Origin: Oceanispirochaeta sp.
GTDB taxonomy: Bacteria; Spirochaetota; Spirochaetia; DSM-2461
Assembly (NCBI RefSeq): GCF_027859075.1
Contig: NZ_JAQIBL010000162.1
Location: 1 to 38,372, forward strand
Direction of reading: 5' to 3'
DNA: 38,372 nucleotides
In this document: piece after piece, positions 11,355 through 11,626 of the stretch
Layout: each line of letters opens with the position of its first letter
Numbering within the stretch: position 1 is the stretch's first letter
Translations under genes and position numbers: made by a program
The notes under the pieces: generated by a model
What the model was told of the DNA's origin: nothing
Seen by the model: only the letters and a program-made list of their open reading frames with translations
The model's database searches: none

Positions 11355-11428
11355 GGCCCATTAAAGGCTTGTATGCCCTACCAGCGCCATGTTATGGCCC
11401 TGGTGATTTATTCACTCGAGGCCCAAGG
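11355..11428. repeat. Direct repeat copy A (74 bases) with hairpin
   Basis: From GGCCCATTAAAGGCTTGTAT to GAGGCCCAAGG. It is nearly identical to copy C at 11553-11626; differences fall mainly in the hairpin stem and T-rich part. It holds an 11-base stem (11380-11390 with 11394-11404, one C-C mismatch, loop GTT). Together with copies B, D and C it fills the 317-base gap between glyA and the transglutaminase-like gene, which contains no ORF I can support. Confidence 0.9.
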
Positions 11429-11443
11429 ACTTAAGCTACTTTG

Positions 11444-11494
11444 CTCTACCAGAGCCATAACATGGCTCTGGTGGTTTTTTCAGTTAGGCCTAAG
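11444..11494. repeat. Degenerate repeat copy B with perfect hairpin
   Basis: Shares CTACC, the hairpin, the T run and the TCA..GGCC tail with copies A and C. The stem ACCAGAGCCAT pairs perfectly with ATGGCTCTGGT (11448-11458 with 11462-11472, loop AAC), followed by GGTTTTTT. On the plus strand this looks like a terminator, but no plus-strand gene lies upstream. Confidence 0.8.
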
Positions 11495-11512
11495 GGCCTA
11501 TACCACTTAATC

Positions 11513-11537
11513 ATCCAGGCAATGCTATTGCCTGGAT
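11513..11537. repeat. Perfect hairpin D, fourth member of the array
   Basis: ATCCAGGCAAT - GCT - ATTGCCTGGAT: 11-base perfect stem and three-base loop, the same geometry as A, B and C, but with a stem sequence of its own. It sits 65 bases from B and 65 bases from C, start to start. The flanks have lost most similarity to the other copies. Confidence 0.8.
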
Positions 11538-11552
11538 AGGATAATATAACAT

Positions 11553-11626
11553 GGCCTAATAAAGGCTTGTATGCCCTACCAAGGCCATAACATGGCCTTG
11601 GTGCTTTTTTCACTCGAGGCCCAAGG
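11553..11626. repeat. Direct repeat copy C (74 bases) with perfect hairpin
   Basis: Second close copy of the 74-base unit. Stem ACCAAGGCCAT with ATGGCCTTGGT (11578-11588 with 11592-11602, loop AAC), then GCTTTTTT. Its right end, GAGGCCCAAGG, runs into the last codons (LGLE, stop) of the transglutaminase-like gene on the minus strand. Stem changes relative to copy B (AGAGCC/GGCTCT versus AAGGCC/GGCCTT) are compensated on both sides. Confidence 0.9.

What the first reader, a model, noticed from the sequence alone, without database searches (positions are those of the whole stretch)
11380..11602. Regular array of four 11+3+11 palindromes in the glyA leader
Four hairpins (11380-11404, 11448-11472, 11513-11537, 11578-11602) all have an 11-base stem and a three-base loop, and start 68, 65 and 65 bases apart. 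Stem sequences differ, yet three pair perfectly and one has a single mismatch; B and C differ by changes compensated on both arms. This pattern suggests selection for structure, not just copying. The T runs follow on the plus strand although both neighbours are on the minus strand, so they are not simple terminators for these genes. They could be a REP-like element family, leader RNA structures for glyA, or a protein-binding array.
Basis: seen in the sequence. Interest (0 to 1): 0.7.

Follow-up and report, generated by a model that had tools for sequence, protein, structure and literature searches.

The report
Genus-specific hairpin repeats between operon genes
The four hairpins beside glyA belong to a family of more than a hundred short, apparently mobile DNA hairpins that has spread through one genus of marine spirochaetes, mostly squeezed between the end of one gene and the ribosome-binding site of the next, and nearly always facing the same way.

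Summary
Observation confirmed: four 11+3+11 palindromes at the stated places, against one other such site in the 38-kb window. They are not a glyA-specific leader but copies of a dispersed repeat: a ~25-nt palindrome with variable stem, a ~13-nt T-rich spacer, and a conserved 11-mer AGGCCKAAGGG. A covariance model finds 110 copies in the genome, 8-37 in four congeners (one is Oceanispirochaeta crateris K2 by exact chromosome length), none in a fifth, none in other genera among 198 genomes of the class. At glyA the array is shared only with that O. crateris genome; four congeners have no unit. Of 85 orthologous sites in relatives, 12 carry a unit. Arrays between co-directional genes lie antisense to them (26 against 4), from stop codon to Shine-Dalgarno, sometimes supplying the upstream stop. 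The plus face is terminator-like (47 of 70 units), the sense face never, so tolerance may explain orientation. No Y1/RAYT transposase was found and the classical REP tag is missing: a REP-like family with unknown mobiliser. Stem pairs are nearly all Watson-Crick without wobble excess, so DNA-level templating rivals RNA selection.

The parts
11374..11429 (+). Unit A: CTACC-palindrome 11380-11404 (one C-C mismatch, loop GTT), 14-nt spacer, 11-mer AGGCCCAAGGA 11419-11429
   Evidence: R1 match 47.6 bits, E 4e-10
11442..11496 (+). Unit B: palindrome 11448-11472 (perfect, loop AAC), 13-nt T-rich spacer, 11-mer AGGCCTAAGGG 11486-11496
   Evidence: R1 match 67.4 bits, E 5e-15; terminator-like on + strand
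11488..11543 (-). Unit C: divergent unit in opposite orientation, palindrome 11513-11537 (perfect)
   Evidence: R1 match 30.4 bits, E 9e-6
11572..11627 (+). Unit D: palindrome 11578-11602 (perfect, loop AAC), 14-nt spacer, 11-mer AGGCCCAAGGG 11617-11627
   Evidence: R1 match 54.2 bits, E 9e-12; terminator-like on + strand
11610..13226 (-). Upstream gene (TIG + transglutaminase-like); its last codons and stop (11610-11612) are supplied by unit D
   Evidence: Pfam PF01833, PF01841; congener G001 without the unit ends IIAQQ* where this one reads IIPLGLE*
10006..11292 (-). glyA, serine hydroxymethyltransferase
   Evidence: NCBIfam NF000586 and PF00464; start by ribosome-binding site
11301..11306 (-). 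Shine-Dalgarno AAGGAG of glyA, conserved in most congeners
   Evidence: alignment of the glyA leader in six genomes

Best explanation
The array is one local cluster of a dispersed, non-coding, REP/MITE-like mobile repeat confined to one spirochaete genus (Oceanispirochaeta). Shown: the unit is bipartite (variable palindrome of about 25 nt, about 13-nt T-rich spacer, conserved AGGCCKAAGGG); it is present in over a hundred copies here, in fewer copies in four congeners, and absent at most orthologous sites; arrays lie mainly between co-directional genes, antisense to them, from the stop codon of the first gene to the Shine-Dalgarno of the second. Inferred: units spread by a DNA-level copying process acting on the hairpin and the 11-mer with an enzyme not identified here; arrays grow by further units landing between the last hairpin and the ribosome-binding site; and the one-sided orientation is kept by selection, because on one face the hairpin plus T tract is an intrinsic terminator that would cut operon transcription if it faced the other way. 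Any effect on glyA expression (a hairpin barrier in the intercistronic mRNA, or a stop for antisense transcription) would be a by-product or a later co-option.
For: AGGCCKAAGGG occurs 106 times in the genome, its reversed control 17 times. Model R1: 110 matches at E<=0.01 in this genome, 16, 8, 12, 37 and 0 in five congeners; in 198 genomes of the class matches occur only in this genus. Empty sites: glyA leader in four of five congeners; 73 of 85 orthologous regions of relatives without a unit at E<=0.01. Orientation 26 against 4 among arrays between co-directional genes, one-sided binomial p 3e-5. T tract after the hairpin in 47 of 70 units on the + face (about 30 expected from spacer shuffles), 0 of 70 on the sense face; 29 of 38 units antisense to both neighbours have it, 1 of 5 units facing with them. 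Spacing hairpin to 11-mer is 13 nt in 48 of 73 raw matches.
Against: No transposase, recombinase or reverse transcriptase could be tied to the family: no Y1_Tnp; the one reverse transcriptase looks like that of a diversity-generating retroelement. A target-site duplication is not demonstrated: flank similarity in matched arrays equals mismatched pairs. No movement has been observed; presence and absence were compared only across species. Gene calls around the arrays come from a home-made finder.
Confidence: 0.72

Rival explanations
1. Functional intercistronic RNA element: the hairpin just upstream of the Shine-Dalgarno sets mRNA stability or translation of the second gene, and selection on that function explains the position and the maintained stem.
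For: Terminal units put the hairpin 3-10 nt from the Shine-Dalgarno in about 20 loci; at the L133 site the stem is kept in four species with changes on both arms while the loop diverged.
Against: Present at only 12 of 85 orthologous sites; no wobble excess on the sense strand; flanking genes share no evident function; two uncompensated mismatches in the glyA copies of G002.
Confidence: 0.2
2. A classical REP family moved by a REP-associated tyrosine transposase (RAYT) that is missing from this draft or was lost.
For: Short palindromic extragenic units in over 100 copies, singles and clusters; GTAG follows the stem on the sense strand.
Against: No Y1_Tnp match in a 96% complete genome while the control rings; GTAG is on the 3' side of the stem with G and T paired, not an unpaired 5' tag; a conserved 11-mer 13 nt away is not a described REP feature.
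Confidence: 0.12
3. glyA-specific leader RNA (riboswitch or attenuator).
For: Position upstream of glyA and strong predicted folding.
Against: Absent upstream of glyA in four of five congeners, same unit before unrelated genes, no Rfam match.
Confidence: 0.03
4. Arrays of binding sites for a nucleoid or regulatory protein.
For: Near-invariant 11-mer and fixed spacing to the palindrome.
Against: Stem sequence is free to vary and copies are patchy between species; nothing testable here.
Confidence: 0.05

Closest known systems
REP / BIME elements and GTAG- or CGTC-tagged palindromic repeats (PMC3733652, PMC8266576)
   Same: 20-40 nt palindromes in high copy, extragenic, single or clustered, subfamilies with complementary stem changes, often between unidirectional genes; REP ends can supply stop codons to neighbours (PMC3733652).
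   Different: No unpaired GTAG or CGTC tag at the 5' side, no RAYT gene found, extra conserved 11-mer at about 13 nt, little G-T pairing, strong single orientation relative to operons.
REPINs (PMC3116915)
   Same: Short non-coding mobile units with hairpins, many copies per genome.
   Different: REPINs are two REPs in inverted orientation (own knowledge of that paper's subject); here single units stand mostly head to tail in one orientation and no RAYT is seen.
Enterobacterial small mobile sequences / MITE-like RU repeats (PMC2759123)
   Same: Non-autonomous repeats in intergenic positions.
   Different: Those are 103-168 bp; this unit is about 50-65 nt and no terminal inverted repeats or target duplication were shown.
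Intrinsic terminators
   Same: Stable stem followed by a T tract on one face.
   Different: They face away from the flanking genes and a third of the units lack the T tract.

Membership tests
REP elements (GTAG/CGTC superfamilies) | Short palindrome, many copies, mainly extragenic | tested here: met
   110 matches in the genome; arrays fall between predicted genes
REP elements (GTAG/CGTC superfamilies) | Unpaired tetranucleotide tag GTAG or CGTC at the end of the stem | tested here: not met
   Sense strand reads stem-GGTAG with GT inside the stem, on the 3' side; no CGTC
REP elements (GTAG/CGTC superfamilies) | Associated RAYT (Y1_Tnp) gene in the genome | tested here: not met
   PF01797: no match at E<=0.001, genome 95.9% complete, control positive; congeners not searched
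REPIN | Two palindromes in inverted orientation as the mobile unit | tested here: not met
   Units are mostly single or head to tail; only a few mixed clusters
MITE | Terminal inverted repeats and target-site duplication | tested here: inconclusive
   No terminal inverted repeats seen; flank similarity no better than permuted pairs, though L116, L127, L129, L133 look like duplicated Shine-Dalgarno
Known RNA family (riboswitch, leader, sRNA) | Match to an Rfam model at its curated score | tested here: not met
   No match in the window; only sub-threshold chance-like matches
Intrinsic terminator | Stem followed by T tract | tested here: met
   Only on the + face: 47 of 70 units; sense face 0 of 70. 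Termination itself not tested

The most novel reading that the evidence does not exclude
A mobile repeat that inserts at Shine-Dalgarno sequences: it lands in or next to AAGGAG between operon genes in one orientation, leaves a working ribosome-binding site behind it and closes the upstream reading frame with its own stop, so that arrays grow head to tail without breaking operons, driven by a mobiliser unrelated to RAYTs.
Probability: 0.2. Interest if true: 0.75.

Novelty: new variant of a known kind. Interest (0 to 1): 0.48.

Why it matters
It adds a compact, genus-wide repeat family with a geometry (palindrome, 13 nt, near-invariant 11-mer) and a position (stop codon to Shine-Dalgarno, one orientation) not matched by REPs as described. 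Six related genomes with filled and empty sites make it a good natural test of how hairpin repeats move and how operons tolerate them, and of whether stem covariation can arise in DNA without RNA selection. It also warns that a striking covarying hairpin array before a metabolic gene need not be a riboswitch.

Tried and rejected
glyA leader RNA: rejected on empty sites in congeners and no Rfam hit. RAYT-driven REP: no Y1_Tnp in the genome. Reverse-transcriptase spread: the single RVT_1 gene looks like a diversity-generating retroelement RT by its Asn-rich copy of a neighbouring gene's end, so not linked. Integron-like integrase: six phage-integrase matches, no link followed. Stops in all three sense frames as a designed feature: not above spacer shuffles. 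Target-site duplication: matched flanks no more alike than permuted ones. Phages as carriers: two pattern hits in viral contigs, neither with the hairpin. Named genomes elsewhere: two chance-like hits, own genome masked there. Literature search for a repeat aimed at ribosome-binding sites gave nothing apt. The covariation counts on A2 are biased because units were picked for pairing; one search repeats the count with selection on flanks only.

Full report
Observation. Three pair perfectly; A has one C-C mismatch. Chance is excluded: with one mismatch allowed there are four such sites in the 240-nt array and one in the remaining 38 kb, and the leader folds about 7 sd below shuffles.

What the unit is. 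Searching the whole genome with the region found dozens of further places. Lining them up showed that the palindrome is only half of the unit. Read on the window's plus strand the unit is CT-ACC...GGT (usually 25 nt), a T-rich spacer, 13 nt in 48 of 73 raw matches, and the 11-mer AGGCC(T/G)AAGGG, which is almost invariant, while the stem varies. The 11-mer occurs 106 times in the genome against 17 for its reversed control. A covariance model from 32 units finds 110 copies at E<=0.01 (probably a lower bound, since only 150 candidates were scored). In the window it recovers A, B and D on the plus strand and C, a divergent unit, on the minus strand.

Distribution. Of five congeners four carry 8-37 copies and one none. 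Among 198 genomes of the class only this genus has matches. G002 has a chromosome of 4,012,482 bp, exactly the length published for Oceanispirochaeta crateris K2 (PMC7380536), so the genus is very likely Oceanispirochaeta.

Presence and absence. In the glyA leader G002 has two 68-nt units and part of a third, sharing the stem mismatch of unit A; G001, G003, G004 and G005 have short leaders without units. For 26 further loci I located orthologous gene starts in up to four relatives and fetched the DNA upstream; with the glyA loci, 12 of 85 regions carry a unit at E<=0.01 (at least one diverged copy, G003 at L133, is missed at that cut-off). Many empty sites are tight or overlapping gene junctions. 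The family is therefore patchy, as expected of mobile repeats, with some old shared sites (L133: own, G001, G002, G003).

Position and orientation. Of 35 one-orientation arrays with both neighbours called, 26 lie between two genes that both run against the unit's plus orientation, 4 between genes that run with it. On the gene strand the order is stop codon, CCCTTMGGCCT, spacer, hairpin, GTAG, Shine-Dalgarno, start; about half reach within 25 nt of the start codon, and in several the first gene's stop lies inside the unit. At the window site unit D supplies the C-terminal codons and stop of the transglutaminase-like gene. In tandem arrays the next unit begins where the Shine-Dalgarno would stand, mostly 8-10 or about 20 nt after the hairpin.

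Why one orientation. On the plus face 47 of 70 units have a terminator-like T tract, on the sense face none; the local scan likewise finds two terminators on plus and none on minus. Units that face along the operon mostly lack the tract (1 of 5, against 29 of 38; small numbers). The simplest reading, an inference, is that only the harmless orientation survives in operons.

Structure or copying. On a set chosen by flanks only, inner stem cells are 361 Watson-Crick, 5 G-T, 6 A-C (wobble on the other strand) and 6 other. RNA selection would favour wobble on one strand; none is seen. Descent from a few subfamilies and hairpin-templated repair at the DNA level fit; the palindromes of window unit A and of L093 differ only by an inverted loop, which such templating would produce. 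Against a pure copying view, L133 keeps the stem in four species with changes on both arms while the loop diverges. I leave this open.

Mobiliser. No Y1_Tnp gene in a 96% complete genome. The only RVT_1 gene looks like the RT of a diversity-generating retroelement. Shine-Dalgarno targeting with duplication is suggested by L116, L127, L129 and L133 against empty sites, but a test on 27 arrays shows no excess of flank similarity over permuted pairs, so it is only a hypothesis.

Comparison. REPs share size, copy number, location and complementary stem changes, and GTAG ends of REPs also supply stop codons (PMC3733652). Two REP features were tested and not met: the unpaired tag and an associated RAYT. 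I file it as a new variant of the kind 'small palindromic mobile repeat', not as a REP.

Noticed in passing
window 6926-8608: An ABC-F type ATPase gene is interrupted by a single in-frame stop at 7499-7501, exactly at the Walker B glutamate (LLLD*PTNHLD); the frame continues open beyond it. Could be a real nonsense change or a sequence error.
   Followed up: partly
L323 (G000:C264), 1267-3588 minus: Likely diversity-generating retroelement: a 419-aa reverse transcriptase ORF whose start carries an Asn-rich copy (NNNGNANNNNASNTNGVVPDSLI) of the C-terminus of an upstream DUF6273 protein (SNTYGVVPAFLI).
   Followed up: partly
L117 2839-3212 (C236) and L129 2744-2838 (C330): Arrays with units truncated at the hairpin side but keeping the 11-mer, as if shortened by slippage at short repeats.
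   Followed up: no
L119 4290-4410 (C241) and L121 400-720 (C289): Two loci share a longer block around a unit (aaaaaaagagactgtccaacaagttg ... tggaggtggcgggaatccactacaatcatcagca), possibly a larger mobile segment or gene cassette.
   Followed up: no
L030 1495-1520 (G000:C308 about 33833): An 11-mer without the hairpin stands between what look like rplE and rpsN ribosomal protein genes, so remnants may exist even in the ribosomal operon.
   Followed up: no
contig ends, e.g. G000:C168, C196, C211, C289, C300, C338, C342: Many units lie near contig ends, so the family probably breaks the draft assembly and copy number is underestimated.
   Followed up: no
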